From Perkinsus olseni (lineage: Eukaryota > Perkinsozoa > Perkinsida > Perkinsidae): a stretch of DNA of 64,000 nucleotides. Made by a program: the position numbers and the translations under genes. Where the stretch lies: contig JABANP010000106.1 in the NCBI GenBank assembly GCA_013115135.1, positions 1-64,000 of the forward strand, written 5' to 3'. The notes under the pieces were generated by a model. That model did not search any database. It worked only from the letters and a program-made list of their open reading frames with translations, and had not been told where the DNA came from. Of the stretch, positions 20,974 to 40,272 are shown one piece after another (the stretch's first letter is position 1; each line of letters begins with the position of its first letter).

Positions 20974-21492
20974 ACCCCGAGCTCCTCTTCCTACTGTTAC
21001 TTCACCATCTTCCTCGGTCTGTGTGCTGAGCCTAGAAGGCAGTAGCTGTTTGTCACCAATTTTACTAGCCGTAACGATGACCGGAAGACGACCGAACTCC
21101 TTGTGAGAGCGCTTTGCCATGCCCGTCGTCACCACCGTCATCGCTAGCGGCTTCTGTCTAGTATTATCCTTTCTTGACATCATAAACCAACTCGTACTCT
21201 TTTCAACATTTCTTGCTTGTCGCGAAGGCCCCGGCCGTGTATTTGGTGGCTGGGAGCTGTTTCTCGTACGAAGTAGTAATCTTTGTTTGGCAGTAATGTT
21301 TGTCTCCTACTGAATCCGAGTCGTGTTGACATAGTAAGCGAGGAAGAGGGCATCGAAACTGCGCTCGCCGTGCCGCTTTCAAATTGCAGGAACAAACGCA
21401 CGAATCTCTTTTCCGGACGCAGGCAAGAAATCCGATAGTATCGGAGTAGTACCCCATAGTATCATACCAGCTTAACATCTTTACGCCTGAGA
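20974..21492. other. Intergenic
   Basis: 3' flank of acyl-CoA synthetase copy 1 and 5' flank of the next + strand gene. No convincing coding frame, RNA gene or repeat seen. Confidence 0.5.
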
Positions 21493-22563
21493 TGATCCTC
21501 CCTCATAAGTCATCGGGCAGAACGGCCTTACTCGCTATCACCCTCTTCGCTAATCTGGTGAGTATCTCCGCTCCCCTGGGCAGAGCACTAGCAGTTCGCT
21601 GTGTTGTTTTAGATGGGCGTCGCCGAGGGAGCCGGGCGTAAGGTGAGTTCTGTGCTCGTCAGAGGAGCTAGCCAGAGTGTATTCACAATGGCAGGCTCTT
21701 GGCGTTTGCACTGTGAACAACCGCCATTTGAGTATATTGAAGATCAAGGCAAAAGAGGGCACAAACACTCTAAAGAAGGCGTGGAATCGCCTCCGCGGGA
21801 AAAAGCACATCGACAGCCGCATGCCCCACGTGAGCCGACGAGCTGCTCTCCGGGTAGCATCTGCATCGACAGGTTGAGTTCGTCCTCGGCGAGGGCGAGA
21901 AACGATTCACTTCCTACTTTTCTCCGAGGACAACAGCCCCTGCTGGAGGCTGCGAAGAGTGGTGAGGCTCTCGCCCTTCTGGGAGGGCCAGCCAGGCTAC
22001 CTTCCCAAAAGATGCAGTGCCGTATCAACAAGAGGGGTGATGAACGCCGTGTCATAAGGAAGCTCATGGCTCGTGTGAGTAACAAAGGATTATCTTAGGT
22101 TGATGATGGTTCATGATCAGATCGGGGCCATCGGCTACCTTGACGGTGGCGAGTGGCGCTTCCTACAGCCTGACTATTCTAAGGGCGACACAGTCTCGGT
22201 GAAGCGTGTGAATGCGCGGTCAGAAGAGAGTGCTGGCACCATCCACTTCCGTCGTGGAGAGACAGCGGTCACTATGATTGATGATAAGACTGTCAGCGCT
22301 CAGAGCACCGACCACATCATGTACAGGCTGAAGTTCGCCCACTCCGAGGCGGCCAGCAGATTCTACCACGCCATCCACGCTATCACTGAGGATGACGTCT
22401 TCAGTCACTCTTCCACTCGTACTCAGGTGAGCTCTATCGGGCCGACTTCGTAGTATCCGCTCAGTATCAGATTGGTGGTGGTAACTCCCCTTCGACTAAT
22501 GACCAAGAGGCTCTGAACCCCTCGGATGATGAGGTGAGCGAAGTGGAACGACTACTCAAGTGA
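21493..22563 (+). CDS. Unrecognised protein, possible signal sequence
   Basis: ATG 21493 begins SGRTALLAITLFANL, a hydrophobic segment that could be a signal peptide. An intron (GTGAGT...TTTAG) leads to MGVAEGAGRK, then another to LGVCTVNNRHLSILKIKAKE. Later exons read VEFVLGEGEKRFTSYFSP, MQCRINKRGDERRVIRKLMA and, from 22100, MMVHDQIGAIGYLDGGEWRF through LKFAHSEAASRFYHAIHAIT. A 44-nt intron (GTGAGC...ATCAG) leads to the last exon, ending EVERLLK with the stop at 22561-22563. I could not make the phase agree at the junction before 22100, so this may be two genes, the second starting at 22100. The tail has a weak PH-like look. It is convergent with synthetase copy 2. Confidence 0.5.
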
Positions 22564-22917
22564 GCAGTCATTCCTCAGTAAATATGTAAATACGAGAACT
22601 ACTTGTTAGCAAGCTTCACAGTGTTTATAAGTTGTTATTCTCATGTTGTGATCATGCATTCACCGGATGTGTTAATAAGGTGTCACGACTGATCTCTATT
22701 GAGTTAGTAAACTCGTTAGTCACTCTTGCCAACCTCAACTAGCTCACTCAAAAAACACAATCCCCGTTATTGTTACCGACGGATAATAACAATCCAATAC
22801 TAAGACGGACCTGTCATTCCCCTACAGTGAAAAAAGTTGATGGAAAAAGTGCTGAGATGAAATTAATCGCTCTGATGGATATTTTGCTTGCCACCAACCT
22901 GACAGGGCGAAATAACG
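22564..22917. other. Short intergenic between convergent genes
   Basis: AT-richer spacer between the stops of the + strand unknown gene and the - strand synthetase copy 2. No coding or structured element noticed. Confidence 0.5.
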
Positions 22918-25500
22918 CTACAAGCGGCCTCCGACTGTGCAGGCTACCTTGTCGCCTATCCCTATATATAGTTCATCGATCTCCTTCTGAAATTTAGCAC
23001 TGGCAACGTTGCGCTTGAGCTTGAATGAAGGAGTGAGGAGATCATTCTCCACGGAGAATGGTTCGGGGATGAGATGAATCGCCTTCACCTGCAAGACTTC
23101 TATTAGTTCAGCAGTCGACAGGTCGGATGATAACAGCAGTAACACGAGCGGCCTGAAGTAATCTCTCACCATTTCAAAACCTCTGAGTTTCTCTGCGGTT
23201 GAACGCTCTTGCAAACTCTTAAAAATGGCCTGCTTAATTTGATCATCCTTGCACAGGCTTGCAGGGTCTCTCCTGCAGAGGGAAGACATGTCGAGTTTAC
23301 GAGCGTTGAGGCACCCACCTGTCTCCTTCCTGTGAGCCGGGAAGGCCCTGGAGGGTCTCAAAGTCAGGGACGATTATGGCCACGAGACAAGAATGGAAAC
23401 TGTTGCCGTGAACAAAGGCTTGGGCTATCAAGGGAGATTGGGTGATGACGTTCTCCACGCGTTCGGCGGAAACGTATTCTGAAGCGGAGTATGCTTGGAG
23501 ACCGCACTGATGCCCGGTGAACCGAAGCCTACCTCCCTGGCTGAGCTTGAAGATACTCTTCTTTCTGTCGACGATCTTCAGTTGTCCCGTCTTCAGCCAA
23601 AGGCCGATATCCCCACTGTGAAGCCAACCTTCAGAGTCGATCGCCTCCTTGGTCCTCTCAGGCATCTTGTAGTATCTACTCGAACACATAACCAACATAA
23701 ACGGGAGTCCCCACGGTCCCCCGCCGCCAAGATGATTCGCCAAATGCAGCTCACCCTTGGAAAATTGACGGGCCTCTGAAGCAGATCTCTCCCCGCCCCT
23801 TGCAGTCGATGGCACTCTCCCCAGTACCTATGCAAGAACATGGCAACCCCGACCTGAGTATCCCTCGGCAGCCCTACCATGCTGAGTATCCGTCGACAAA
23901 TACCCAAGCTCTGGCACGTCAACGAGTTTGATGTCCATGCAGCAAACCGGGAGCCCGACATGGCCCGACGTGAAGTCATGAAGATGAGAGTAGGTAGCAA
24001 GGCATGTGTTCTCCGTTTGACCGTAGCCTTCGGTGACAGGGCAACCAAAAAAGACCCTCAAGAAGTCCATGACGTGGTTGGCGAGAGGGGCGCTTCCACT
24101 GGCGACAAACTGCACCCTATCGAGACCGATCCTCGCCTTGATCTTATCGAAGACCAGCTTGTCCCAAAGAGCATGCTTAAGCATGCCTTCCTGTAGTCTG
24201 GCTTTCTTAGACGCCAACGCCTGCTCGAACAGATAGGCCTTGATGCCGCCAGCAGCACGAGCACCGACGGTGATTTTGTCGTGAAGGCGATTCAGCAACC
24301 TTGGTACTGATACAAAAAGGGTCGGCCTGAGCGCTGCAACATCCTCCATAATCTTGAGAGGGTCGCCCTGGTAGAATCCGACAGCCACTCCGAGATGGAC
24401 CAGAGATATACTAACCAACCGCTCCATGATATGCGGCAGAGGTAGGTAACTGAGGTAGTACTGCTGAGAGCCCTTAACGTCAAAAAGAGGGCTCTGGGTC
24501 CCAAGGAAAATCACAATAGAGCTGATATTAGCTACCACGTTACCATGAGAGTTCAATGCTCCCTTGGGGTCACCGGTGGTACCACTAGTATAGCAGAAGG
24601 TAGCGATATCAGTAGGCTCTCCCACGAGGGGCTCGATGTCGGCCTCACTGCCCTTCTTCTCGATGTCACCGAAGCGGTGGAACTTGAGCCCAGCTGCATG
24701 GCAGGCGGTGGCGACAGCTTCTGGGCAAGCCTCAGGGTCGGCGCAGATGATGTTAGTGAGAGTAGGGCATTCGGCTTTGCACGCAATAAGTCGAGGAATC
24801 TGTGATGCTGTACACACCACGGTCTCCAGCAGCACTTGGTTCACGATATAGTCAACGACGTCCTCCCCGAGGGTATCATAGAGGGGGACTGTTGTAGCTC
24901 TTCTGGTGAATGCTCCTTGCTCAGCGATAACCCACTCAGATCTGTTCTTCATGTAGATACCGATTAGCCTCATCGAACCATCCTCGGATTTGGATAGTAG
25001 ATTGAGTTCTTCCAGCCCTCTACCGAAGTTGATTATTCTCTCATAGACCTCTTTATAAGTCTGCCATTCAAATGGGCCCACCGAACCATCATCCAGTATA
25101 GGGCGAGTGCCGTGGCAAGGACGATCGGGGTACTTCTCAGCAGCCTGACATACGAGCAACCCTGCAATAACTCCACAACAATCGCCAACACACAAACAGC
25201 CCGGGTGCGCAGTCCAAGGATAGCAAAGCGGAATATCACCGTGCAAGGCTCACTGACGTACCCTTTTAAAGACAGCGGCGCTGGTGTTCAACGACTCGTC
25301 ACCGTCGATGAGACTGATGTTACCGGAGGAGGCGTCCGGATTCCTGTAGATTGGACCGCATTCTCCTGGGACAGCAGAGTCGGGAACCTGAAGAGAGAAA
25401 GCACATGCTTGAAGAGAAAACTGGAAAGCGAAGGGGCCGCTCGAGAACTAACCTCGTAAGTGTATGGCGCCGGAGGTGACACAGAGATGGAGTTTCCCAT
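22918..25500 (-). CDS. Long-chain acyl-CoA synthetase, copy 2
   Basis: Paralogue of copy 1 in the opposite orientation. Start ATG 25500 (MGNSISVSPPAPYTYE), intron, VPDSAVPGECGPIYRNPDAS, intron, then [20 protein letters not shown]. Motifs: [60 protein letters not shown] and [12 protein letters not shown], then the EYVSAERVENVITQSPLIAQ exon. The end is [20 protein letters not shown]...GDKVACTVGGRL with the stop at 22918. The intron after STDTQHG is about 50 nt and must be spliced at TTGCATAG to keep the frame (…[19 protein letters not shown]). The 5' tract from AAEKYPDRP to YDTLGED is almost identical in DNA to copies 1 and 3. The ATP and AMP motifs are intact, so the enzyme is probably active. 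Confidence 0.92.
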
Positions 25501-26882
25501 GCGAGATTTGCAGACGGGATCAAAAACTGAGCACGGAAGCTACTCGCAACCGTCATCGCACGCTAGTTGAAAATTGAAGGGAAGGGTGTGGTGCAAAATG
25601 TTATTCAATCGCGTGTAAGTGCTGCAAAATCCATCATCGGCTCCGAGCTCTCATGCTCGCAGTGATGGGGAAACTGCGCGCCGTTCTGAGATAGTAAAGG
25701 GTGGGCCTGGTGAGGTACTGCTAGGATTAGCCGACTTCGCCATAGGTCGCTTACGACGGCCCACCGCTGAGGAAGCATGTGACGTCGTCCTTCACGACGG
25801 CAGAGCCTAAGAATGCTCCTTCATGAGGACGAGCTAGCGCCGAAAAGGGAGACAGCTGTTTCGCCTCGTGCCTGGGCGCGTCGTGTGTCTGCGTGCAGAG
25901 CAAGGAGATCTCGTGACGTGACCAGAGTGGGCAGCAAGGTACCCCGTCAACAAGAACAACAAGTGCGGCGATCTCCAGTGCGATCATTTCTAGGATGGGC
26001 GCCTCCGCTGGAGTACCACCTGGTGACAGCCACCGTAATAGAGGAGAAATGCCGACGATCGCTCCGCCGACACGCGTGGCCCTAGGTCTTCACAAGGCTA
26101 TGCAAGTAGCATGCCCAGCTAATGACCCTCGCACTTCGATTGCGGTACTACTCCATGATCAGTCAAGACGAGATCGAATCATTTGATGGTATCCCGTTGG
26201 TGATTACGATGGGGTGTAGAAAGCGGGCATGGGACTCATGGTGTGCAGTAGCACTGGCCACTATGCGCGCACTCGGCGCCGCCGCACATAACTATTGTGC
26301 GCTGTCGCCAAGCTGCCGTGCGTTCGGATGGCGGTGGAAGGCCGTTGCTAGAGCAACCACTGCCGATTCGACAGTGTCGAACAGAAGCGTCTGCAGAGCT
26401 CTGTACTACAGAGCTCTGTACTCCTCCCATCCACGTGTGTTTACCACACTGGAATCGGAGCGAAGCTTCGACAAATCCCAGCCTTTCTTCCGGGACATCG
26501 AAAACATCTACAGGGCACCCGGCACCTGAGTGCCTGAGTCCGGGGGTCCCAAGGGGTTGGTGTCAGGCGGCCTGACCCAGACCCCTTGCGATGAACACCT
26601 CAGTGGCATACACTGTCTCGTACGCACTCATGCGGCTGGCTCGGATATTCCCTCGACACACGAAGTGTATCGATCACTAAGTCAAGACTCATGTGGGAGT
26701 CATAAATCGAAGTAGCCAATCTACTGCCAAGAACGACAACTGTTGGTGATCGATAATCTTCCGCAAGGGATCATAAAGTCAGCAAGACTGAATGCCTATC
26801 AAATAGTCGAAAAACGCTAAGTCGCCATCTCGTGTGTACCAGCATGCGAATGGGTAAACACCGTCACATCTTAGACCTGGGT
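25501..26882. other. Intergenic, about 1.4 kb
   Basis: Lies between the start of synthetase copy 2 and the end of copy 3. A 135-codon + strand open frame (26122-26529) has no recognisable motif and I do not call it a gene. A perfect-looking 15-bp tandem duplication around AGAGCTCTGTACT lies at about 26395-26425. No RNA gene seen. Confidence 0.4.
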
Positions 26883-29578
26883 TCATCCAAAATCTGAAAG
26901 GCAGAACAAGGGTGGCAGTGCGAGAGGTGAATGCGGGCCTACAGTTTCCCCGATTTGTTCATACAAGGCGTCGACTTCCTTCTGGAACACCTTCACGGCG
27001 ACGTTACGCTTCAGTTTGAATGACGGCGTGAGTATGTCGTTATCGACAGAGAACATCACAGGAGACAAGTGAATCGCCTTCACCTGAGTCAGGCCTGCCG
27101 GTGGGTAGTTGACTACTGCAGACCGGAACGCACCCATTCGAACTTTCTAAGACCGGACTTCTCTGAGACTTCACGTAGGGTTCTCAATATCAGAGAATTC
27201 ATATATTTGCTCCGACAAATATCCTCAGGGGACCTGAAAATACACAGCAGCTGAACAGTCGATGGTCTCGGTGCAAATCGGGGACCGAGGAAGATTCCCG
27301 AACTCGTAAACCAATTAGATCTAGCGGGCTGGGCGAAAACATCAGGGAACCGTATTTAGGCTTACTTGAGATCATTTCGATTGCGCAGTTCATTCGACAA
27401 GTTTTCAAAGTCGGGGACTATGATTGCCACTAAAGAAGACCTCAGCGAGTTGCCGTAGACAAAGGCTTGTGCAACGTATGGCGACTGTATGAGCACGTTC
27501 TCGATCCTCTCAGGAGCAACGTATTCTGAAAGGGAAGAGCGGTGTTGCAACTCGCATAGCATCAACCGCTAGACAAGCATGTAACAACAGCGATCGATTT
27601 GTGCGTTCCTACAACCGCACGAGAAAGGCAAATGAGAAAACACTCACCTCCATTGCTGAGCTTGAAGATACTTTTCTTCCTGTCGATGATCTTCAGTTGT
27701 CCCGTCTTCAGCCAAAGGCCGATATCCCCACTGTGGACCCAACCATCAGAGTCGATCGTCTCCTTGGTCTTCTCAGGCATCTTGTAGTACCTGATGTAGT
27801 TCTGTTGCAGATGCCCTTCATCCCTCCCAGTCAATTGGTTACCTACCCGGAGAAGATGGATGGTCCGCGAAGGAGTATTTCGCCGCGACCACGACACTCT
27901 AGCTTGGATACTCCCGAGCCTGCGAGGGAGCGTCTTCGCTCATGAACCATGACCAACGGCGTGGCCCAGTGAGGCAGTCAACTCACCATGTTCCGTGTCC
28001 GTGGAGAGATATCCCATCTCGGGTACATCGGCTAGTTTGATTTCCATGCAGCTCGCCGGATACCCCACGTGGCCGGACGCGAAATCGCTAGGGTGGGTAT
28101 AAGAGGCTAGCCCCGACTCGGTAGAGCCATACCCTTCCAGGACAGGGCGAGCAAAGAAGAGTCTCAGGAAATCCAATACGTGTGTGGCAATGGGAGCACT
28201 GCCCGTGAAGACGAGTTGAACTCTATCGAGCCCTAGCCTCTCCTTAATCTTATCGAACACTCCGCGGTCATATTGAGAGTGCTTCAATGTGCCACATTTG
28301 AGCAAGTTCAACTTCGCCTGAACAGCTTTGTCAAACCCAGCTGAGGCATTTGTGGTGATGACTCTCTCATAGAGTCGGTTCAGGAGGCGAGGTACCGAGA
28401 CGAACACTGTGGGCCGGAGTGCTGCAATGTCGTCCATCAACTTCAGAGGGTCGCCTTGGTAGAAGCCCACTGCTACGCCAAGGTAGTACAACGCAACTTC
28501 GACCACTCGTCCAAAGACGTGAGGGAGGGGCAGATAGTTGAGGTAGTAGTGGTGGCCCTTCCGTAAATCAGAGAGGGGATAGGGGGAAGTGAAACACTCA
28601 ACGAAGGCAGCTGCATCGGCAATAACACTTCCCTGGCTTAGAAGTGCCCCCTTCGGCTCGCCTGTTGTACCGCTTGTATAACAGAATGTCGCGATGTCAG
28701 TAGCAGCACCGACGAGAGGTGAGTACGACAAGTCTGCGCCCAGGCGTTCGACCTCGTCCATGCTGAGGAGTTTCACATCGACGGCAAGACAAGCACCAAT
28801 CGCCTTCTTCTCCAGATGGTCAACACATATTATGGTGCGCAGGCTGCGACACCTTCCTTTGACTTTGACAAGGTTCGGGACCTGTAGCGCGGAGCAGACG
28901 ACTGTTGACAGTTCTGTCTGGTTGAGTATGTAGTGGACGGTATCCTCCCCGAGGGTATCATAGAGGGGGACTGTTGTAGTTCTCCTAGTGAATGCTCCTT
29001 GCTCAGCGATAACCCACTCAGATCTGTTCTTCATGTAGATACCGATTAGCCTCATCGAACCATCCTCGGATTTGGATAGTAGATTGAGTTCTTCCAGCCC
29101 TCTACCGAAGTTGATTATTCTCTCATAAACCTCTTTATAAGTCTGCCATTCGAATGGGCCCACCGAACCATCATCCAGTATAGGGCGAGTGCCGTGGCAA
29201 GGACGATCGGGGTACTTCTCTACAGTCTGGACAAAGACAACGGAAACCAGAGATGATAGAGGGATCCGTGAATAGGTGCGCCCCCACTCACCCTCTTGAA
29301 GACATCGAAGCTAGTCACAATGGACGAATCATCGTCAATGAACCTTTGCAATCGATTCTTGTATCCCGGATGCCGATACACAGAACCGCTGACGCCGGGA
29401 ACGGCCGAGTGTGGAATCTAACAGGTGATCAGTACACCCTCGAGTTTGTCAATGAATCGAAAATGAACGATAAGGTATACTGTGCGTCGTGTGACGAGAC
29501 TAGTGAGCGCGACACTCCGCATTCAAACATCCCGCTGAACAGCCTCACCTCGAATGCATAGTCTCGACTTTCCGCCAT
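26883..29578 (-). CDS. Long-chain acyl-CoA synthetase, copy 3
   Basis: Third paralogue, head-to-tail with copy 2. Start ATG 29578 ([10 protein letters not shown]), a long intron, then [19 protein letters not shown], intron, [15 protein letters not shown]. Motifs: [40 protein letters not shown] (GYGxTE with Ser where the others have Gln), [71 protein letters not shown], and [20 protein letters not shown] near the end. The stop is at 26883, unless a further short intron follows GETV. It shares the near-identical 5' tract and the second tract with copy 1 (about 97-98% by eye). Several introns here are longer than usual for this window. Confidence 0.9.
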
Positions 29579-30940
29579 AGGGAAAGGCATGCAAAATCAA
29601 CCAATACTGTAGACACACGCTCGCGTTCACATAGGACAAGTCGGAGACCTCATCACACCCACGGCGACTGATACCCGGCCTCCCTCCCCCAACTCAGTAG
29701 CACTGGTCTGGGGCACGTCATACTGCATGACGCTGGTGCAAACCCTAGAAGAAAACGGTCCTTCCAAAGGGTTCATTTGAAAATCGTAACAGAACACGAA
29801 TCTGTGTGATGAAAGGAAACGCATAAGTATCACACTATACGGTAGTTATCGTAGTAGCTGTAGCTTGATAATTGCTGCGTTCAGTGATTAGTAGCAGGCC
29901 CTGCTAAGCAGGGCCCTACTAGGACTCTCCTACTAAATGCTGCTGCCGTCGGAGACTATGCCGGGAGACTCCCGGCGGGAGGCTTTTGCCTTGGTCGCAT
30001 ACTGACAGTATGATACTGTTGATACCAATGCTTTGGGGCCTTCTCGAACGTCAAGTCACGGTGACGACGTAACCCGAGATATGAATGACCTCGGTGGATG
30101 ATAGTATACTAGCATTGGTTGACAGATCGGACCAAACTAGTCGTCCCGGATACTGTGGAATCACGATTAACCGCAATGGCCGTGATGTGATCGGTGTGGG
30201 CGTCAGCACTCTACCAAAGCAGAAATTTTGAGAATGACGAGGATCAGAGTCAATTGGCGCGATTCGATGTAGAGGGAGTAAAACTTTTACTGTAAAAGGT
30301 CATCTAATGACGAGCTAGAGCCAAGTACGGAGGGCACATTGCATGACTTACCATAACAGTTTTTCCGCTGCCCATCTGAGCGATTTTTACCGTGCCAGTC
30401 AGCCCGACCGACGTAACAACATACGCTTCACTCTCACGGTGAGAGTCTCACCCAGAGGTCTTATCAATTTAAATTAAATTATTTAATTGCTGAGACCTAA
30501 TTCAAAGGGAACGATCAAATTAGTGAGGATAAGGCAGTCGATCCTACCGGTAAATGAGATTCAATTTCGATCGAGCAACGGGGAGAACTTCCGGTGTCAT
30601 CGACATTATAAATGTAGACGTGGCCGTCGGCTATGGCGAGCCCGAGCTAAGGACAAATATTCCTCGAAGAGTCAATCCAAAGGTCGCAGAATCTGCACTG
30701 CAGAGGTCCCTCATTTCTGCATTGCAGAAGGGAAAGCCCTATACCCCCATCATGGGGGTCCCATGTGTTGCAATTTCTTCCAGGAAGTCCACTGCCCTGA
30801 AGTCCCCTAACTGCCTTACACTATGAGACTTATAGTGTTAACGCTGACGAGCATGATGAGGTAGAAAGTCGCGGCCCACATAGTGAGTGGGAAGAATAGG
30901 AAAGTGATTCTCTAATAATGGCCGTCATTTTGATTTTTCA
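29579..30940. other. Intergenic with small perfect palindromes
   Basis: Upstream flank of synthetase copy 3 and left flank of the retrotransposon. Three odd-length perfect palindromes occur close together (29897-29915, 29960-29976, 29998-30012). A 90-codon + strand open frame (30554-30826, MRFNFDRATGRTSGVIDIIN) has a somewhat protein-like composition, but no match I recognise and no clear splice partners. I leave it as unassigned. Confidence 0.4.
29897..30012. repeat. Cluster of three perfect inverted repeats
   Basis: GGCCCTGCT-A-AGCAGGGCC (29897-29915), GCCGGGAG-A-CTCCCGGC (29960-29976) and CATACTG-A-CAGTATG (29998-30012). Each is a perfect inverted repeat around a single central A. Arms are 9, 8 and 7 bp. 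They lie in non-coding DNA about 320 bp upstream of the start codon of acyl-CoA synthetase copy 3. Function unknown. Confidence 0.8.
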
Positions 30941-31211
30941 AGTCAGGATTACTCGCGTAGTGAACCCGACCCAAAAGATGTACTGCAACTCAGAAGCAAC
31001 CAAACGTATAGATAATACCCAAGGCGACACGAGTCACCAGCTATACGATACGTCGACGAACCACGTCAGACAACCGAGTCTGCACGGAGTAATGGCTACG
31101 AAATCGATCTAGCGAAGCTTAGCTTGAAGCACCCGTCCTGCACTACACAATCGTGCACCATTGTGCAGTGCTGTCCCGATTCCGGCCGATACCACACTTC
31201 ACACCGTCACA
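30941..31211 (-). repeat. 3' LTR of the Ty3/gypsy element
   Basis: Direct repeat of 38212-38481. On the element strand it begins TGTGACGG and ends ...CCTGAC, where the last base differs from the 5' LTR copy (T instead of A). Other differences by eye are one extra A near 30974, a T/G at about 30949 and a C/T near 31022. It is immediately preceded, on the element strand, by a purine-rich tract. Confidence 0.93.
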
Positions 31212-32068: not shown

Positions 32069-35000
32069 CTAATTAGTCCTTCCGTTCTCGTCATGACGAC
32101 GAGAAGCTAGAGGGACGTACTGACTTGGGTCGAAAGGAGCGGGAGGTGGACGTCGGACTCGAGTGGACCGCCAACCGACCGAAGCATCATCTCTACGGAT
32201 GCCTCCGGCCTCTTCTTGTTGATTACCGGCATCAACCAAGGGGGCGTCGTCAACTTGATCAACAACATCTTGTACACCGTCAGCACGCGACTCCTCCGAC
32301 CGAACAGAGCTCTGAGGAGGAGAAGACTCCTCCCTCGCAGAACCGAAACCAGGGGAACGTTCAGGAGAAGAAACCATCGGCGTCAACAGATCTGGGGGAG
32401 ATTCGGGATCATCAACCGGAGTCTCAGCTCGGGGACTAACCAAACCTCTAACCATGCCGTCATCTGCGGACGCAGGAGTCACAGGGGAACCAGGCAGAAC
32501 AGGGGCGTCATTCAAAGGTGGAGCAGGCACGTCGTTCAAAGGCAAGATAGGCACATTCTCAACTGGTACATCATCAACCACTTCCGGCCGACGAACTAAG
32601 GGCTCGACGTCTTCGGGCTCAACATCCTCATCTCTCTGCTCACCCTCAGGATTCGGAACAACCGGATCCTCAACAACATCACGGTCTTCAGGGGGAAGTA
32701 ACTCCCACACATCATACTCCACTAAGCCTTGAGCTTGAGCTGGAACTTCCTCGTGACCATCTTGTTGTTGGACCTCGGCGTTACCGGCCTCGTCAGGAAC
32801 TGGCGGGACGTCGATGTTGTCACCCGGCACCACATCGTCGTTCACCGGACCCTCATACAGCAAGGGGAAGTCGGACAAGTGCGGGTCTTCTAGCGGAGGT
32901 GGAGGATGTCGTACAATACCCATATGAGGAGGAGGATGTGGCGGTTGCAAGGGGTCAATATGAAGCAAGTCGACAGAGATAACCTTAGTATGACCAGTGT
33001 CTTCGTGCATCACTTCCACAGCCTTCACAACCCGTCCTGGCATAATGCGCTTGACAAACCAACCGTCCTCCCAACCGGATAAGAGCTTGTCACGCCGACC
33101 ACGAGAACTCGGGAACCTCTTAAGCTGCACCTTCTGACCCACAAAGAACACCCTCGACTTAGCCTTCTTATCATAGAAGTACTTCTGACGAGCACCAGCA
33201 TACGAGACATATAGATCCACCGTATCCTGAATACGAGCTCGAGTGTGAGCTTGTTCTTCCGACCAAGTGATAGGATCATGCAGATTGAAGGCGTCAGACA
33301 GAGGTGGAAAGTAGCCAACATTAGGCTCCCGGCCAAACATGAGGAAGTAAGGCGTGTGCCCCGTACTGGCATGCACACTAGTGTTGTAGCACCACAAAAC
33401 CGTCCTCAGCTTGCCCAGCCAATCATAAGAGTGGTCCACGTGCGTCCTTAACATTCCCAGCACCGTCTGGTTAAAGCGCTCGACTAAACCATTGCCTTGA
33501 GGGTGATATACCGTACAGTGGGCTCGCTCGCAGCCCAGGCCCGTGAGAACTTTCTCAAAGACCTTGGACTCAAACGCCGGCCCATTATCCGACAACACTC
33601 GCTCTGGGGGACCAAAATGACCGAACAGAACATAGAGAGAAGCTACCGCACTTGCTGCCGTTTCATCAGTCACAGGGAAGGCCTCCGCGAACTTAGTAAA
33701 ATAGTCCACAACCACCAACAACTTGGAGAAGGAGCCGACCGGAGTTGACAACGACAAGAAGTCGATGGCTACCGTGTGCCACGGCCGGCCTACAGGAATA
33801 GTTACCAAGTCCATAGGGGGCACGACCTTCTTCTTAGCCTCCTTGCAACGGCGACACTCGCAGATATAGTCCGCAACCGCCGTCAACATACCCGGCCAGT
33901 AACACAAAGAGGTGAGCTTTTGACCAACCCGTTCCTTACCAAAGTGGCCGTCGTCATCATGAAACTGAAGAAGCACCTCCGACCTAATCGCTTGAGGGAC
34001 CACAGGGACCAGGCGAGGCTTGTCATCAGGCAACGGCCGAACCAGTCGCACTAAGACACCGTCCACGACATCCAACTGACCCCAGATCTTCTTGTAAGGC
34101 ATAAGCTCCGGCCCTATCAATTCGTTCCTCGCCAAAGGAGCCGGATCCAACCTTCGCTCGAATACCAGAGATAGAGTCGGATCAGCTCGCTGAACATTAC
34201 GAAGTTCCTCCTTAGTCCACCGGGGCGCCACCGAGAGAATGCACACGATGGGCGAAGTCAGCCGTACCGACCCACCTAACTCGCCGCCCTCGAGCGTAGC
34301 CGAGAGTCGACGAGGCTCAACGAGCCGATCTTGCTCTGTCCCGCAGCCAAGTTGCTCCGCGGACAGCATCTCAACATCAGGAACACCTTCCTTCTTGAGA
34401 GTAACCGGCCTAATCCGAGAGAGAGCATCAGCATTAACGTGCTTAGTTCCTTCTCGATAGCGGACCGTAAACCGATAAGCCTGCAAGGCCAGTAGCCACC
34501 TCGTCACCTTCGGGCTAGTAGCCTTACGTAACCACGTGAGGGGCCTATGGTCCGTGACCATAACCACCTCCAAGGGGTAACCGATGATGAAGTGGTGAAA
34601 GAAGTCCAACGTCTTCAGCAGAGCATACGCCTCCTTCTCATACGTGGGCCAGTTCAACTGTGCCCCTGTAAGGGACCGGCTAAAGTAGCCCAACGGACGG
34701 CCATCTTGTTCGAGAACCCCACCAACCGCGTAATCACTAGCATCCGTGAAGATCTGGAACTGCCGGCCAAAGTCAGGGTACATCAAGTAAGGGAGCCTTG
34801 CCAAAGCCATCTTCAAGTCCACGAAGGTGGCCTCGTGATCATCCGACCATAACTCTTGTACTCGGCCTACATCATCTTTACCGTCCAGAGCCTTACAAGC
34901 CGCCAACAACTCACGAAGGGGGCGTTCTCGAGCTGAGTAGTTGTCGATAAACTTGCGATAATAACCAGCCAGACCCAAGAAAGAACGGAGTTCCATAGTC

Positions 35001-37138
35001 GTCTCAGGAACCGGCCACGTCGTTATAGCACTAACCTTACTCCGAGCGGGCTTCATACCGACCTCGTCAAAGACATGACCCAAATACTCCACCTCAGGTT
35101 GACCAAAGTCACACTTGTCAGGCGCCAGAGTCAAGTTAGCCGACCTTAACCGCTCGAAGATAATCCGCAAGTGCTCCAAATGGGTCTCCTCGTCTGGACT
35201 GAAGACCAAGACATCGTCTAAGTAGATCCGGACGAAAGGTAAGTCGCCGAGCTCAAAGTGCATCAACCGCTGGAAGGAGGCAGGGGCGTTCGACAGACCG
35301 AAGGCTACACGCTTCCACTGATACAAGGGAAAGCCCGGACCCGGGCAGAAGGCAGTCTTCTCCCGGTCTTCCGGCCTCAACAACATCTGCCAATAACCCG
35401 ACCTAAGGTCCAAGGTAGAGAAAACCTTGGCCCCCTTAAGATGCTCTTGAACATCGTCCGGCCTAGGAACCGGATAGGCGTCCAAGTCAACAACCTTATT
35501 AAGCTCGCGGTAGTCGATACACATCCTTACTCGGCCGTCCTTTTTAGGGACATAGACACAAGGGAAGCGGTAGGAGGACGACGAGAGCTCAATCACATCC
35601 GCGGCCAGCATCTCGGAGACCATCTCTTCCACATCGCTACGCCACTTATGAGGGACTCGTCGAACCTTCTCGGCAATAGGCTTCTCCTTCTTCAAGTGGA
35701 TCTCGTGCTGCATGTGGTCGCACCTACCCGGCCGCTTAGAGAAGAGGTCCGAAAACTCCAAACACAGGGCCTTATACCGACCATACTTGGCGTCGTCGGG
35801 GAACTGCGGTAGCTCCACCCCATCCGTCTGGAAGTCCGGAACAGCAAACTCCAAAGCAGCAGCCAGGTCATCACCGTCCAGCTCGTCTACATCAACACCT
35901 TCACCAGGCCACTCTTCCGGAGGAGAGAGACCCTTATCGGGAATAATAGAGCTTAACAGAGTCGGACCAGTTATAGGCGGGACCACCATAGAAGCACGAA
36001 GAACCTTAGCATACTCGGGAACATGCTCCGACCGAATTTGTTGTAGAGCTCGATCCGACCTTTCCTTCCGAGAAGCCGCTGAAGTCACCGATTTAGCATC
36101 ATCGCCGAGATCACCAGTCGCATCCTTAATAACGGGAGTCACAGGTCCTCCGGCCGCTGCCTCACACCACCGGTCTTCAACTTGAACCTCCTTCGAAACC
36201 ATCTTGGGTACCGGGACTTGGAGTGAAGGCAACCGATAACGACCAGAATCAATAACTGATGCAGCAGACGACGAAGACGGACCACTGGACTCCGAAGAGG
36301 ACCGACTTGGACCCGACCGATGACGATTAACCTCACGCCGACGGCGACGACGACGGCGACGGCGACGATGACGACGGTGGTGACGACCAGGCTCCGACGA
36401 GGGGCTTATAGAAGGGGTAGCGGCGTTCGCCGGGGCTACCACATCCAACACGGAACCGTACTCCGGCCGTAAGGAACCAACATCTTCTGGGCCTTCACCA
36501 ACAAAAATCGAAGGAGTCATAACCACGGGATCAGCAGAGTTAACCAACCAATCAAGAATATTAGGCTCAGACATACGCTTCCTAAATTCTTGGGGAACCG
36601 ATAAACGCACAGCATCCATACCAGCCATCAAACCCATTCCAAAATGACGCAGAAAGTCCATGCCTAATAACATATCTACACTAAGGGAGTCGATAACTAT
36701 CATACATACGGGGAAAACCGGCCCCGGAACTACCTCATCCTTAGTCGGGCCGGACCGGGAAGACGGTTCCCGGCCGGGAGGTAAAACATAAAAACAGACG
36801 TCCAAGTCCAGTACACCCAATATCTTACAAGTACCACCATTAGCCGTCCTGATAAAATTCAGAGGACACGGCCTTACCAAAGACAGCATGGACGGGGAGA
36901 GCGCTTGCTGCGGTATCAGAGACAAGTCACTACCAGTATCAATAACGCCACATAGAAGCGCCGACCGATCCACCGAAAGAGGCGAAGACACCATCACCCA
37001 AACCTGCGGGCTATGCCGACCAAATAAGTCAATATAAGTAGAGGCAGACGTCAGACCCAAATTAATAGCTTCCGGCCTCCCAGCGATCACCGAGCCGACC
37101 GGAGGCTCGCGAAGAGGTGATCGCTCAACTAGTTTCCC
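32069..37138 (-). CDS. pol: Pol polyprotein (protease, RT, RNase H, integrase)
   Basis: Open from the frameshift site to the stop at 32069. Residue numbers below count from the codon at 37090. Aspartic protease: VIDTGSDLSLIP, active Asp at 51. Reverse transcriptase about 505-680 with MCIDYRELNK, FGLSNAPASFQRLM and RIYLDDVLVF (YLDD at 623-626). RNase H starts with QIFTDASDYAVGGVLEQDG near 779-797. The integrase zinc region is H1044, H1049, C1078 and C1082; the catalytic core has D1110, D1168 and E1204 (LSDNGPAFES, YHPQGNGLVERFNQ). The end carries a Pro/Glu/Val-rich tail of about 270 residues. Unusual: an arginine-rich run (236-252) and a 200-residue linker between protease and RT. There is no ATG at the frame start; translation is by -1 frameshift from gag. 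The element is one of the genome's retrotransposons, not an infectious virus. Confidence 0.95.
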   Translation of the reverse strand, partial: GKLVERSPLREPPVGSVIAGRPEAINLGLTSASTYIDLFGRHSPQVWVMVSSPLSVDRSALLCGVIDTGSDLSLIPQQALSPSMLSLVRPCPLNFIRTANGGTCKILGVLDLDVCFYVLPPGREPSSRSGPTKDEVVPGPVFPVCMIVIDSLSVDMLLGMDFLRHFGMGLMAGMDAVRLSVPQEFRKRMSEPNILDWLVNSADPVVMTPSIFVGEGPEDVGSLRPEYGSVLDVVAPANAATPSISPSSEPGRHHRRHRRRRRRRRRRREVNRHRSGPSRSSSESSGPSSSSAASVIDSGRYRLPSLQVPVPKMVSKEVQVEDRWCEAAAGGPVTPVIKDATGDLGDDAKSVTSAASRKERSDRALQQIRSEHVPEYAKVLRASMVVPPITGPTLLSSIIPDKGLSPPEEWPGEGVDVDELDGDDLAAALEFAVPDFQTDGVELPQFPDDAKYGRYKALCLEFSDLFSKRPGRCDHMQHEIHLKKEKPIAEKVRRVPHKWRSDVEEMVSEMLAADVIELSSSSYRFPCVYVPKKDGRVRMCIDYRELNKVVDLDAYPVPRPDDVQEHLKGAKVFSTLDLRSGYWQMLLRPEDREKTAFCPGPGFPLYQWKRVAFGLSNAPASFQRLMHFELGDLPFVRIYLDDVLVFSPDEETHLEHLRIIFERLRSANLTLAPDKCDFGQPEVEYLGHVFDEVGMKPARSKVSAITTWPVPETTMELRSFLGLAGYYRKFIDNYSARERPLRELLAACKALDGKDDVGRVQELWSDDHEATFVDLKMALARLPYLMYPDFGRQFQIFTDASDYAVGGVLEQDGRPLGYFSRSLTGAQLNWPTYEKEAYALLKTLDFFHHFIIGYPLEVVMVTDHRPLTWLRKATSPKVTRWLLALQAYRFTVRYREGTKHVNADALSRIRPVTLKKEGVPDVEMLSAEQLGCGTEQDRLVEPRRLSATLEGGELGGSVRLTSPIVCILSVAPRWTKEELRNVQRADPTLSLVFERRLDPAPLARNELIGPELMPYKKIWGQLDVVDGVLVRLVRPLPDDKPRLVPVVPQAIRSEVLLQFHDDDGHFGKERVGQKLTSLCYWPGMLTAVADYICECRRCKEAKKKVVPPMDLVTIPVGRPWHTVAIDFLSLSTPVGSFSKLLVVVDYFTKFAEAFPVTDETAASAVASLYVLFGHFGPPERVLSDNGPAFESKVFEKVLTGLGCERAHCTVYHPQGNGLVERFNQTVLGMLRTHVDHSYDWLGKLRTVLWCYNTSVHASTGHTPYFLMFGREPNVGYFPPLSDAFNLHDPITWSEEQAHTRARIQDTVDLYVSYAGARQKYFYDKKAKSRVFFVGQKVQLKRFPSSRGRRDKLLSGWEDGWFVKRIMPGRVVKAVEVMHEDTGHTKVISVDLLHIDPLQPPHPPPHMGIVRHPPPPLEDPHLSDFPLLYEGPVNDDVVPGDNIDVPPVPDEAGNAEVQQQDGHEEVPAQAQGLVEYDVWELLPPEDRDVVEDPVVPNPEGEQRDEDVEPEDVEPLVRRPEVVDDVPVENVPILPLNDVPAPPLNDAPVLPGSPVTPASADDGMVRGLVSPRAETPVDDPESPPDLLTPMVSSPERSPGFGSAREESSPPQSSVRSEESRADGVQDVVDQVDDAPLVDAGNQQEEAGGIRRDDASVGWRSTRVRRPPPAPFDPSQYVPLASRRHDENGRTN
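37082..37138 (-). promoter_or_regulatory. Programmed -1 ribosomal frameshift signal
   Basis: On the element strand the last gag sense codons hold the heptamer G GGA AAC (37132-37138) in the correct phase, immediately followed by the gag stop TAG. After a 6-nt spacer comes a perfect 10-bp stem, AGCGATCACC (37116-37125) with GGTGATCGCT (37082-37091). Inside the loop is a second stem, GAGCC/GGCTC (37104-37108 with 37092-37096). A loop CCTCC could also pair with GGAGG just 3' of the stem, giving a pseudoknot. Slipping back one base gives GGG AAA CTA, which is exactly the pol frame (37138 is in phase with pol). Confidence 0.92.
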
Positions 37139-38148
37139 GGACTAGGCGGCTTAGAACGGGACGGACAATTACGAGCGAGATGACCGGTCTGACCACACTT
37201 AAAACAACCAGAGTCAAACGCCTTATTAGGGCAAGCCAACGCAGAGTGAGCGCCGCCACAATTACCACAACCCCCGCGACCACGGCCCTTGCCACCATTA
37301 CCCTTGCCAAATCTTTGTTGGGAATCCAGCCTTTGAGTAATACCGGCCAAGTTTTCCATCATAGGAGCCAACACAGATTGAAGAGCCTTGCTAATCTCAG
37401 CCGCGAGGGGCTGGGATTCTGCCGTGACTGGAGGCCTTGATATCATACGACCGTCCTTAGTAGCGGTACCCGGGCTGTAGTCATCGACGATGGAGCAGAT
37501 AGCACGAATAGAATGGTCTTGCTGCTTGCGGAGCTCTTGCTGGGCACCTTCAGGAGCAACCGCAACACACCGGTCGAAAATCTGCCGACCCATAGACTCC
37601 GCAGACATACGTTGGCCTTGTGGAAGAGACCGATTATACTCCTTCAGATACCGACCAAGACGAGCCGCAAAGACCACGAAGCGCTGATGACCGTCCCACA
37701 CCAGAGAATTGAAAGCCCGAAGCGCTTCATCCGGCGAGCGCTTAGCAAAGAGACTCAGCATTAATACCTTGTCGTCCTTCCAGTTCGTCTTACTTGCCAA
37801 TTCTTCCCATGAGTCAAAGAAGTCTTCTTCCAGATACATACCAAGACGAGATGCTCGCGAACGCTCCGACCACTGAGCCGCATCGGCTGCTGCCTCATAA
37901 CGACGAAGCCATGACCGAAAGTCGGTAGTACCATCGAAGGGATGGGGCATTCTGCTGGAAAGTTGCACACTAACGGCTCCGGCCTGTTGGTTGTCGTTGT
38001 CACCGTCCGCCATGTTGACACGGGGCTCTCGCAACATAGTAGCGGTGGTCGTGCCGTTGTCAGCGTTACCATCTCGAGAAGTAGGCGATAGGAAGTCGGA
38101 CTCTTCACCGTCCACACCAGTCGTAGAATCTTGTAAGATAGAGGACAT
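37129..38148 (-). CDS. gag: Gag structural protein with zinc knuckles
   Basis: The first ATG is at 38148 (MSSILQDSTTGVDGEESDFL); the frame is open 5' of it but starts with non-ATG codons. About 339 residues. The middle region (PHPFDGTTDFRSWLRRYEAA, QRFVVFAARLGRYLKEYN) fits the capsid-like domain of Ty3/gypsy Gag. Near the C terminus are CGNCGGAHSALAC and a canonical CCHC knuckle CFKCGQTGHLARNC, which bind RNA. It ends SPGN with the stop at 37129-37131, overlapping the frameshift heptamer. Only about 50 nt separate the primer-binding site from the ATG, so the leader is very short. Confidence 0.93.
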   Translation of the reverse strand: MSSILQDSTTGVDGEESDFLSPTSRDGNADNGTTTATMLREPRVNMADGDNDNQQAGAVSVQLSSRMPHPFDGTTDFRSWLRRYEAAADAAQWSERSRASRLGMYLEEDFFDSWEELASKTNWKDDKVLMLSLFAKRSPDEALRAFNSLVWDGHQRFVVFAARLGRYLKEYNRSLPQGQRMSAESMGRQIFDRCVAVAPEGAQQELRKQQDHSIRAICSIVDDYSPGTATKDGRMISRPPVTAESQPLAAEISKALQSVLAPMMENLAGITQRLDSQQRFGKGNGGKGRGRGGCGNCGGAHSALACPNKAFDSGCFKCGQTGHLARNCPSRSKPPSPGN

Positions 38149-38211: not shown

Positions 38212-38481
38212 TGTCAGGAGTACTCGCGTAGTGAACCCGACCCAAAGATGTACTGCAACTCAGAAGCAACCAAACGTATAGATAATACCCAAGGTGACAC
38301 GAGTCACCAGCTATACGATACGTCGACGAACCACGTCAGACAACCGAGTCTGCACGGAGTAATGGCTACGAAATCGATCTAGCGAAGCTTAGCTTGAAGC
38401 ACCCGTCCTGCACTACACAATCGTGCACCATTGTGCAGTGCTGTCCCGATTCCGGCCGATACCACACTTCACACCGTCACA
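38212..38481 (-). repeat. 5' LTR of the Ty3/gypsy element
   Basis: 270 bp, on the element strand TGTGACGG...CCTGACA, i.e. canonical TG...CA ends with a TGT/ACA inverted terminus. About 98-99% identical to the 3' LTR at 30941-31211. It must carry the promoter; I see no unambiguous TATA box. Confidence 0.93.
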
Positions 38482-39120
38482 ACCGGCCTCATTTTTTGGA
38501 GGGGCCCTAAGCTGAGATTTGCGGGAGACTCTCACGGTTGGCGAGTGATTTGAGAGAGACTCTAGTACGAGTTTACTCATTTGCTGCCACTGTGGACTCC
38601 TCCTACGTGGCATTTGATCTCTGCAACCCGACCTTTCAACTACTACACCTTCGACTTCGAGTTCCAAGTATTTGGGATTGAGGCCTTCCAGAACTACTGT
38701 GACATCAAGAACCACTCAGACTTGTCTACATCGACTTCCCCTTTCCTTCGGTTCTGCTAAGGCCACCCCGATACTTCACACTTGAGACGATACGTAAGCT
38801 CAGCTAGTGAGGGAGACAGTCACAAGAGGAATCGTGGGGCGAGACAGTAAATTCTGTGCAACATCTGTTGAAACCGTGGATTCTAGCACTCATCCCTGAC
38901 CCGAGGGATGCTCTATCCAGAACACCTCGTTCAAGTGGCTCGTGCATTCACCTTTCGTCACTGCTCGTCGACATCACCGATCGATAACATCTGAGGGCCC
39001 TCATGCTGACTTCTCAGTAGAGAGAACCCCATCGGATCGTAAGTACTCGCGTGAACTACTACTAACTCGAGTGATTCGCTATGAGTCAAATACACCAGCA
39101 TTGGATAAATAAATTCATGG
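38482..39120. other. Right flank of the retrotransposon
   Basis: On the - strand 38490-38715 stays open for about 75 codons (VLEGLNPKYLELEVEGVVVE) and runs straight into the LTR. This could be a coding exon interrupted by the insertion, but the + strand is also open there and I see no partner exon on the far side. The remainder to 39120 is non-coding. Confidence 0.35.
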
Positions 39121-40272
39121 CTATGGTAGCAATGATGAACTCAGCTCTCTCCAAAGATCCCCTCCGGATCTCTTAGAGCAACCTCCGTGGGGAACCGCCC
39201 ATCGGTGATAGTACTGAGCAACCTCGAGGGTCGAGTTCTCTAAGTCGAAATGCGTGTAGTAGGCCCGAAAGAAGGGCATGCCGAGATGCACAGTCTTAGA
39301 CTCGGTCGGCTCTATCGCGAGTATGCGCAACGTGTCCGAGTACTCTTCGGTGTAGTAGGCAGGGCGCAGCACCAGGCACGCTCCGTGAGAGAAGTCGCCC
39401 AAGTTGAGTTGAAGTATCGGCATACGCTCCATCTCAGTATTCCTGATCAGCCACTTGTTGCCCTCGTGTTCAACTCCCGATCTGTCCAGCATCGAAGTGA
39501 CTTTTTCGTAAAGTTGGGTGGGTAGTCGAATAAGAGCATCACCCGTATCGAGTACGGCCAGCTTGTTGTTTAACGCGATGAACATGGTCCCTCCAGTGGC
39601 TACGCTCACGCTAGAGAGCCTCAGCTGCAGCAGAGACGACGTTTGCGAGGCTCTCGACTGTACCAGCTCCATGTGTCTCATCGCGAAGACTGCACAATCG
39701 CCCCTTCCACCTAGAGTCAGCGTCCCATCTAGGTGTGTGCTCTGCTCAGGAGTGCACACACTGAACCTTCGCTCTTGGATAACCCCGGCTGCGTAGAGCT
39801 GCTTGAGGAAGGGCGAGGGGCCGCCCGGCTGAGGCTGCGCTAGACCGAGGAGACCGTGGGGCTCTTCTTCGGACGATGGCGAATTGAAGCCGATAATTAG
39901 CCCGAAGGTGGCACTGTGAATCACTCGACCGCCGATGGTGATTGAACCCTCATGCATCACAAAAGTAACATGAGTGTCGTCGCCAAATTCGACGAAGAAT
40001 TTCCGCGAGGAGCGGTAGGGATCACAACCATCCGGACATGTATAGCATCCTGAGCTCAGCGTCGTACAGCTGCGACCGGCGTAGGCCTTCTCATACCACT
40101 CCTTGTACACCACGAAGAGGGCCTGACTGCCGGTGTCTACTATCAGCCGCTGCTCCTGCTTATCAAATTCCATCGCTACAGCCCCTCCCTCGATGGGAGC
40201 GGTGACCTCTGCAGCCTCCACCCGCCAGAGCAAAACAAGTGCCGAGGTGAGAGCTCTGGCGATCGAAGCCAT
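39121..40272 (-). CDS. Pepsin-like aspartic protease, secreted
   Basis: Single exon of 383 codons from ATG 40272. The N-terminal segment ARALTSALVLLWRVEAA is a signal peptide. Two catalytic lobes: RLIVDTGSQALFVV near residue 44 and LAVLDTGDALIRLP near 240, both DTG. FFVEFGDDTHVTFVMHEGSI marks the flap region and HGLLGLAQPQ is the family's G-L-L-G-L-x stretch. It ends with FDLENSTLEVAQ, matching the closing strand of family A1. It should cleave proteins in the endomembrane system or outside the cell. No propeptide of normal length is obvious, since only about 25 residues separate the signal peptide from the first lobe. There is no C-terminal anchor. Confidence 0.9.
   Translation of the reverse strand: MASIARALTSALVLLWRVEAAEVTAPIEGGAVAMEFDKQEQRLIVDTGSQALFVVYKEWYEKAYAGRSCTTLSSGCYTCPDGCDPYRSSRKFFVEFGDDTHVTFVMHEGSITIGGRVIHSATFGLIIGFNSPSSEEEPHGLLGLAQPQPGGPSPFLKQLYAAGVIQERRFSVCTPEQSTHLDGTLTLGGRGDCAVFAMRHMELVQSRASQTSSLLQLRLSSVSVATGGTMFIALNNKLAVLDTGDALIRLPTQLYEKVTSMLDRSGVEHEGNKWLIRNTEMERMPILQLNLGDFSHGACLVLRPAYYTEEYSDTLRILAIEPTESKTVHLGMPFFRAYYTHFDLENSTLEVAQYYHRWAVPHGGCSKRSGGDLWRELSSSLLP

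What the first reader, a model, noticed from the sequence alone, without database searches (positions are those of the whole stretch)
37082..37138. Textbook -1 frameshift cassette joining gag and pol
Seen directly: the heptamer G GGA AAC is in the zero frame and abuts the gag stop codon. A 6-nt spacer follows, then a perfect 10-bp stem with a nested 5-bp stem, and a possible loop-downstream pairing CCTCC/GGAGG that would make a pseudoknot. A one-base slip lands exactly in the pol frame. G GGA AAC is a known slippery heptamer in some retroviruses, while the yeast Ty elements use +1 shifting. A -1 site with such strong structure in a protist Ty3/gypsy element would be a good model for recoding in this lineage.
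Basis: partly seen in the sequence, partly recalled or inferred. Interest (0 to 1): 0.85.

Follow-up and report, generated by a model that had tools for sequence, protein, structure and literature searches.

The report
Conserved frameshift signal in Perkinsus retrotransposons
A mobile element in a Perkinsus (shellfish parasite) genome carries a signal that very probably makes the ribosome slip back one base to read its enzymes, and many distantly related elements in the same genome keep the same signal with a pairing-preserved RNA hairpin.

Summary
The host is a Perkinsus, close to P. olseni.

Comparison makes the case. Among 36 gag-pol junctions of 14 related families in this genome, 34 keep GGGAAAC/T; the two that lost it show no intact pol. 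All 17 pol loci whose frame is open back to the junction have it. Six nt downstream lies a 9-bp hairpin that covaries: 6 of 9 pairs, 97% of cells paired. A model built without the window's family finds exactly the window site. Heptamer-to-hairpin distance is constant, whereas heptamer-to-stop varies (0, 3 or 15 nt), so the geometry suits slippage, not stop-codon events.

The pseudoknot is not supported: loop-downstream pairing is not conserved, and competing folds exist in the window's family. The conserved stimulator is a hairpin. This is a new, lineage-wide instance of a known mechanism (as in PEG10). No frameshifting was measured.

The parts
37132..37138 (-). Slippery heptamer G_GGA_AAC, last two sense codons of gag
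   Evidence: Sequence; retained at 34 of 36 junctions of 14 related families, as GGGAAAT in one family
37129..37131 (-). gag stop codon TAG, directly after the heptamer
   Evidence: Sequence; its distance from the heptamer varies between families, 0, 3 or 15 nt
37126..37131 (-). 6-nt spacer (includes the stop)
   Evidence: Sequence; heptamer to core stem is 6 nt in 14 of 14 families in the model-fitted alignment
37116..37125 (-). Stem S1, 5' arm AGCGATCACC
   Evidence: 10 perfect pairs with 37082-37091; covariation across families
37082..37091 (-). Stem S1, 3' arm GGTGATCGCT
37092..37115 (-). 24-nt apical loop with nested stem GAGCC/GGCTC (37104-37108 with 37092-37096); peculiar to this family
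   Evidence: of the other 13 families, 11 have a loop of 10 nt (B: 7 nt) in the 9-position stem, two (K, P) a bulged stem
37129..38148 (-). gag ORF from first ATG, 339 aa, CCHC zinc knuckle
   Evidence: (PF00098)
32069..37138 (-). pol, -1 frame relative to gag, counted from the heptamer: protease-like DTG, RT, RNase H, integrase
   Evidence: the DTG motif is read from the sequence and is not a Pfam match
38241..38481 (-). 5' LTR, repeated core of 241 nt (repeat runs about 28 nt further towards gag)
   Evidence: 2 differences in 241 nt
30971..31211 (-). 3' LTR, repeated core of 241 nt

Best explanation
It is the gag-pol programmed -1 ribosomal frameshift signal of a Ty3/gypsy-type LTR retrotransposon of Perkinsus. 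A ribosome with tRNA-Gly on GGA and tRNA-Asn on AAC is held by the hairpin that begins 6 nt downstream; some ribosomes slip back one base onto GGG AAA, continue at CTA and make a Gag-Pol fusion (about 2,026 aa here, by arithmetic), while the rest stop at the next codon and make Gag alone. Shown: sequence layout, frame relation, retention of the heptamer, constant heptamer-hairpin distance, covarying stem. Inferred: that slippage occurs, its efficiency, and that the hairpin rather than a pseudoknot or the alternative fold stimulates it.
For: Coming from the pol side, 17 of 30 pol loci have a frame open back to the junction and all 17 have GGGAAAC/T in slip phase there; in the other 13 the frame stops, or the contig ends, before the junction. 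GGGAAAC/T is kept at 34 of 36 junctions examined and in 16 of 16 copies with a -1 pol frame of 1,000 codons or more, although gags of 10 families are 24-43% identical outside the D/F/I group. In 8 of 10 full-length gags it is the only in-phase X_XXY_YYZ (Y = A or T); it starts 7-22 nt before the stop in all 10. Hairpin: 97.2% of cells paired, 6 of 9 pairs with double changes, covariation 0.515 against 0.183 shuffled and at most 0.140 slid; with 14 families in a model-fitted alignment 98.4%, 8 of 9 pairs, 0.652 against 0.220. A model built without families A, K, O and P recovers all four. Heptamer-to-hairpin distance is constant while heptamer-to-stop varies. Of 14 gag relatives read, 7 end in ...GN, as GGA AAC would encode, from P. 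olseni, P. marinus, P. chesapeaki and one unnamed source. A distant element in the same genome has gag and RT in one frame, so the split is a property of this group.
Against: No translation data. One copy (C469) lost 6 nt of the stem yet keeps an open pol frame of at least 1,226 codons. In the window's family the hairpin competes with another fold, and copy C373 of that family fits the model poorly (19.1 bits). One of the five covariation measures, the number of further pair types, does not exceed shuffles (10 against 8.7, 134 of 500; 97 of 500). Family B has one mispair and no unusual folding energy (z +0.7). The 14 cassettes share ancestry, so they are not 14 independent origins; families F and I are 77% identical in gag. 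Seven of the 14 gag relatives read do not end in ...GN: two run on into pol sequence, the others end elsewhere, four of the seven being marked partial.
Confidence: 0.93

Rival explanations
1. Splicing: a short GT-AG intron removes the heptamer and stop and joins gag to pol, as the public gene model P0001 (P. olseni FOL46_002192) implies.
For: P0001 runs from GHLA straight into PERSPLREPP, which I read as a roughly 44-nt GT-AG intron; in-phase GT-AG pairs exist in all 10 families tested, 2 to 35 per family (donors within 130 nt upstream and acceptors within 90 nt downstream of the stop, introns of 30 nt or more, stops after joining not checked).
Against: Such an intron would remove the last Cys of the CCHC knuckle. 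The in-phase options differ from family to family and number only 2 in family L. Splicing explains neither heptamer retention nor the covarying hairpin at constant distance. Another public model of the same gag ends in ...PGN (P0002).
Confidence: 0.03
2. Separate initiation: pol is translated from its own start (leaky scanning, internal entry or termination-reinitiation at the gag stop).
For: Gag stop and pol frame overlap or abut, and pol has in-frame start codons downstream.
Against: The heptamer-to-stop distance varies (0, 3, 15 nt) whereas heptamer-to-hairpin is constant; conservation of GGGAAAC would be unexplained.
Confidence: 0.02
3. Frameshifting is real, but the stimulator in the window's family is a pseudoknot or a switch between the hairpin and the overlapping alternative fold rather than the hairpin alone.
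For: TCCGGTC pairs with GGCCGGA downstream (7 pairs, shuffle p 0.075); the alternative fold is the 72-nt optimum (-28.8 kcal/mol) and the 60-nt and 75-nt optimum in copy C373.
Against: Not conserved: 2 of 12 families reach p<0.05. In 50-, 60- and 75-nt segments the plain hairpin is optimal for the window copy.
Confidence: 0.2

Closest known systems
PEG10 (Edr), mammalian gene derived from a Ty3/gypsy element (sushi-ichi homology per the abstract of PMC10570562, listing)
   Same: Ty3/gypsy ancestry, GGGAAAC, -1 shift, 5-nt spacer, GN/GKL peptides, protease after the site (passages of PMC2800197)
   Different: Stimulator is a pseudoknot; overlap 61 nt; a domesticated mammalian gene rather than an element with LTRs
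Retroviral GGGAAAC sites (MPMV, SRV-1, JSRV, maedi-visna, FIV)
   Same: Same heptamer, downstream structure after 6-7 nt in those named (table passage of PMC3835772; column headings not seen, order is my reading)
   Different: Pseudoknots with first stems of 6-7 bp; here a 9-10-bp hairpin and no conserved second stem
Stem-loop-stimulated -1 sites (simple-hairpin class; HIV-1 recalled as example)
   Same: Heptamer, short spacer, plain hairpin; PMC3835772 says some stimulators are conventional stem-loops
   Different: Other heptamers, other lineage
-1 gag-pol sites of animal LTR retrotransposons (2003 survey quoted in a 2016 review)
   Different: That passage names animal, fungal and plant elements; this is an alveolate, with a covarying hairpin across 14 families
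Yeast Ty3
   Same: Ty3/gypsy element making Gag-Pol by frameshifting
Perkinsus mitochondrial frameshifts
   Same: Same genus, frameshift decoding (PMC9550989, abstract and passages)
   Different: Mitochondrial genes; no heptamer-hairpin cassette in the passages I saw

Membership tests
Programmed -1 ribosomal frameshift site (eukaryotic tandem-slippage type) | X_XXY_YYZ heptamer in the zero frame | tested here: met
Programmed -1 ribosomal frameshift site (eukaryotic tandem-slippage type) | Downstream ORF in the -1 frame, open across the heptamer | tested here: met
Programmed -1 ribosomal frameshift site (eukaryotic tandem-slippage type) | RNA structure about 5-9 nt downstream | tested here: met
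Programmed -1 ribosomal frameshift site (eukaryotic tandem-slippage type) | Measured production of the fusion protein | not testable with these tools
   No translation or proteome data at hand
H-type pseudoknot stimulator | Conserved loop-downstream second stem with feasible loop lengths | tested here: not met
   2 of 12 families at shuffle p<0.05; window candidates have L3 of 1 or 4 nt against a 10-bp stem; that this is too short is recalled knowledge, not computed
Ty3/gypsy LTR retrotransposon (Metaviridae) | Order RT, RNase H, integrase | tested here: met
Ty3/gypsy LTR retrotransposon (Metaviridae) | Flanking LTRs | tested here: met
Ty3/gypsy LTR retrotransposon (Metaviridae) | Target-site duplication | tested here: inconclusive
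   None evident by eye at the ends printed; LTR 3' boundary uncertain by a few bases

The most novel reading that the evidence does not exclude
In the window's family the extra apical stem and the overlapping downstream pairing form a two-state RNA: the ancestral hairpin and an alternative fold of similar energy exclude each other, so Gag-Pol output could be set by which fold re-forms in front of the ribosome.
Probability: 0.12. Interest if true: 0.65.

Novelty: new member of a known kind. Interest (0 to 1): 0.5.

Why it matters
One genome holds 14 families with the same heptamer, spacer and a hairpin that evolution has re-paired repeatedly: a natural mutational series for asking what a hairpin stimulator must conserve, in a nuclear alveolate setting for which I found no report (searches: listings and abstract starts only, apart from the passages cited). 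Perkinsus mitochondria are already known for frameshift decoding (PMC9550989), so cytosolic and mitochondrial recoding can be compared in one organism. It also suggests that automatic gene models cut the fusion at the gag stop (P0002) or bridge it with what looks like a false intron (P0001).

Tried and rejected
Pseudoknot: searched in 12 families and rejected as a conserved feature (correcting). Splicing: in-phase GT-AG pairs counted in 10 families and rejected on pattern. Relatives in viral contigs: no match to the six peptide patterns used. Pattern scan for cassettes outside the elements: 25 matches against 8 for the control; 15 of the 25 lie at junctions already known and the other 10 are about what the control gives. 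That pattern can see only some families (15 of the 34 known sites), so a cassette in a host gene is not excluded. A second pattern was badly chosen and matched nothing, known sites included. Alignment A1 was not used, because its A and K rows are out of register and one row was mistyped; the alignment mixed orientations and was not used.

Tally rules: the 36 junctions are places where the sequence around gag's 3' end was in hand: 34, plus C636:20126 (heptamer degraded, pol frame closed 23 nt on) and C473 (heptamer degraded; not among the 61 pol matches, a capped list). Gag matches without a 3' end or not fetched, and the distant C720 (no heptamer) and C932 (single frame), are not in the 36. 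Of the 16 copies with a long pol, 15 are counted and C13. Other long pol frames (for example C337, C386, C82, C668, C503, C285) stop or run off the contig before a junction is reached and are not in the 16. In one search, 36 of 48 sources matched at E<=0.0012; several are two views of one place. The 12 without such a match are L004 (C636:20126), L075 (single frame) and L013, L014, L018, L022, L031, L032, L033, L061, L062 and L064, in which I saw no intact junction.

Full report
What is there. The window is contig C9 of a 61.5-Mb, 968-contig genome. Gag relatives in the protein collection are Perkinsus wherever a name is given (P. olseni, P. chesapeaki, P. marinus; only the 7,998 candidates sharing most words were scored). 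One P. olseni entry is 100% identical over 70% of the window's gag and another is 99% identical to a sister family's gag over its full length, so the host is P. olseni or a near relative. The finding lies in an LTR retrotransposon on the minus strand: LTR cores 38241-38481 and 30971-31211 with 2 differences in 241 nt, gag with a CCHC knuckle, and pol with RT, RNase H and integrase in Ty3/gypsy order.

Observation. Every coordinate in the finding is right. Heptamer 37138-37132, stop 37131-37129, spacer 6 nt, 10-bp stem, nested 5-bp stem; the -1 frame is open for 1689 codons.

Comparison within the genome. Searches with pol and gag returned 61 and 60 matches (lower bounds by the tool's own note). 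From the pol side, 17 of the 30 pol loci have a frame open back to the junction, and in all 17 the first in-phase X_XXY_YYZ is GGGAAAC or GGGAAAT; in the other 13 the frame stops or the contig ends first. In all I examined 36 junctions, which I sorted by eye into 14 families, A to P without H and J, the window being A. Thirty-two read GGGAAAC, two GGGAAAT (family G), two have lost it. The two that lost it have the -1 frame closed 23 nt on (C636:20126) or no pol match (C473). All 16 copies whose -1 pol frame is open for at least 1,000 codons have the heptamer (15; C13). Full-length gags of 10 families are 24-43% identical except within the D/F/I group, 53-77%; M, N, O and P were not in that comparison. 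In 8 of these 10 gags the cassette heptamer is the only X_XXY_YYZ (Y = A or T) in slip phase; D and I have one more far upstream.

Structure. Twelve cassettes from 10 families (A, K, O and P left out) align into a 9-bp stem with a 10-nt loop (7 nt in B): 97.2% of cells paired, 6 of 9 pairs changed on both sides, covariation 0.515 against 0.183 +/- 0.040 for shuffles and at most 0.140 for slid partners; the number of further pair types, 10, is not above shuffles (8.7; 134 of 500). RNAalifold finds the same stem unasked. A covariance model from these 12 recovers the left-out families: window and C13 32.8 bits, K 38-39, O 56-58, P 29.4, and the third A copy, C373, only 19.1. In the 64-kb window it has one match at E<=1. 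With one cassette from each of 14 families, fitted to the model and therefore leaning towards it, 8 of 9 pairs show double changes and 98.4% of cells pair. The window's copy has A-U where the other 13 have G-C (columns 26/64). Its loop is 16 nt longer than the usual 10, not a multiple of three, so the 3' arm is read in a different codon phase than in those families and still pairs perfectly: the constraint looks to be on RNA, not on protein.

Discriminating evidence. Heptamer to core stem is 6 nt in all 14 families in that model-fitted alignment; counted as the longest uninterrupted stem, three families (E, L, M) start 1-2 nt earlier because the stem extends outward. Heptamer to gag stop is 0, 3 or 15 nt, and 42 in one broken copy (C499). 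A mechanism tied to the stop codon (readthrough, reinitiation) would fix the other distance.

Pseudoknot. The better candidate TCCGGTC/GGCCGGA has shuffle p 0.075. Across 12 families only C (0.048) and M (0.018) fall below 0.05, without correction for 12 tests. The pseudoknot is therefore unproven and not conserved. In family A an alternative fold containing this pairing is optimal at 72 nt from the stop (-28.8 kcal/mol against -26.2 for the best hairpin-type structure listed), but the hairpin is optimal at 50, 60 and 75 nt from a start 3 nt further on in the window copy; in C373 the alternative is optimal at 60 and 75 nt.

Evidence the other way. C469 has lost 6 nt of the stem's 5' arm and still has an open pol frame of at least 1,226 codons; family B has a mispair and an unremarkable folding energy (z +0.7); mean z over 14 families is -2.3. 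Nothing here measures translation.

Contrast. C932, a distant element (RT region 36% identical, open frame 2,066 codons), has the CCHC knuckle in the same frame that runs on to the RT, so not all elements of this genome split gag and pol.

Other species. Of the 15 gag relatives returned I read 14 (P0014 not fetched). Seven end in ...GN, as GGA AAC before a stop would give: P. olseni P0002, P0005, P0006, P0009, P. marinus P0013, P. chesapeaki P0015 and the unnamed P0004. Two run on into pol-frame sequence (P0001; P0003 of P. chesapeaki, which reads GKL at the site) and five end elsewhere (P0007, P0008, P0010, P0011, P0012). DNA of those species was not available, so this is indirect. P0001 bridges the site with what I read as an intron and would lose the last Cys of the knuckle.

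Known context. G_GGA_AAC is among the most slippery heptamers on mammalian ribosomes (PMC5009743 passage), is used by several retroviruses (PMC3835772 table passage) and by PEG10, a gene of Ty3/gypsy origin (PMC2800197 passages). A survey quoted in PMC5009743 found -1 pol in 28 of 51 animal elements. The mechanism is therefore known. What is new, as far as four searches show (listings and abstract starts), is its occurrence and deep conservation in Perkinsus retrotransposons, with a covarying hairpin.

Noticed in passing
L021 (C469), cassette at 702-744: Copy with open -1 pol frame but 6 nt missing from the hairpin's 5' arm, a multiple of three; a natural stem-deletion variant.
   Followed up: partly
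L075 (C932): Distant element with the gag CCHC knuckle in the frame that runs on to RT: single-ORF strategy in the same genome.
   Followed up: partly
L083 (C720) 112-125: Distant gag tail overlaps a -1 frame by about 13 nt without any X_XXY_YYZ heptamer; perhaps another recoding signal or a decayed copy.
   Followed up: partly
P0001 (P. olseni FOL46_002192): Public gene model fuses gag and protease over what looks like a roughly 44-nt GT-AG pseudo-intron covering the slippery site.
   Followed up: partly
window 30940-30971 and 38481-38511: No target-site duplication is evident at the LTR ends although the LTR cores are 99% identical.
   Followed up: no
window 39121-40272: Pepsin-type aspartyl protease ORF (PF00026) beside the 5' LTR, same strand as the element.
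   Followed up: partly
window 18810-29163: Three similar ORFs in both orientations that I read as acyl-CoA-synthetase-like (recalled, not searched): a local gene-family array.
   Followed up: no
A2 columns 31-40 (hairpin loops): The loops share a G followed mostly by pyrimidines near their 3' side; protein coding or loop structure, not resolved.
   Followed up: no
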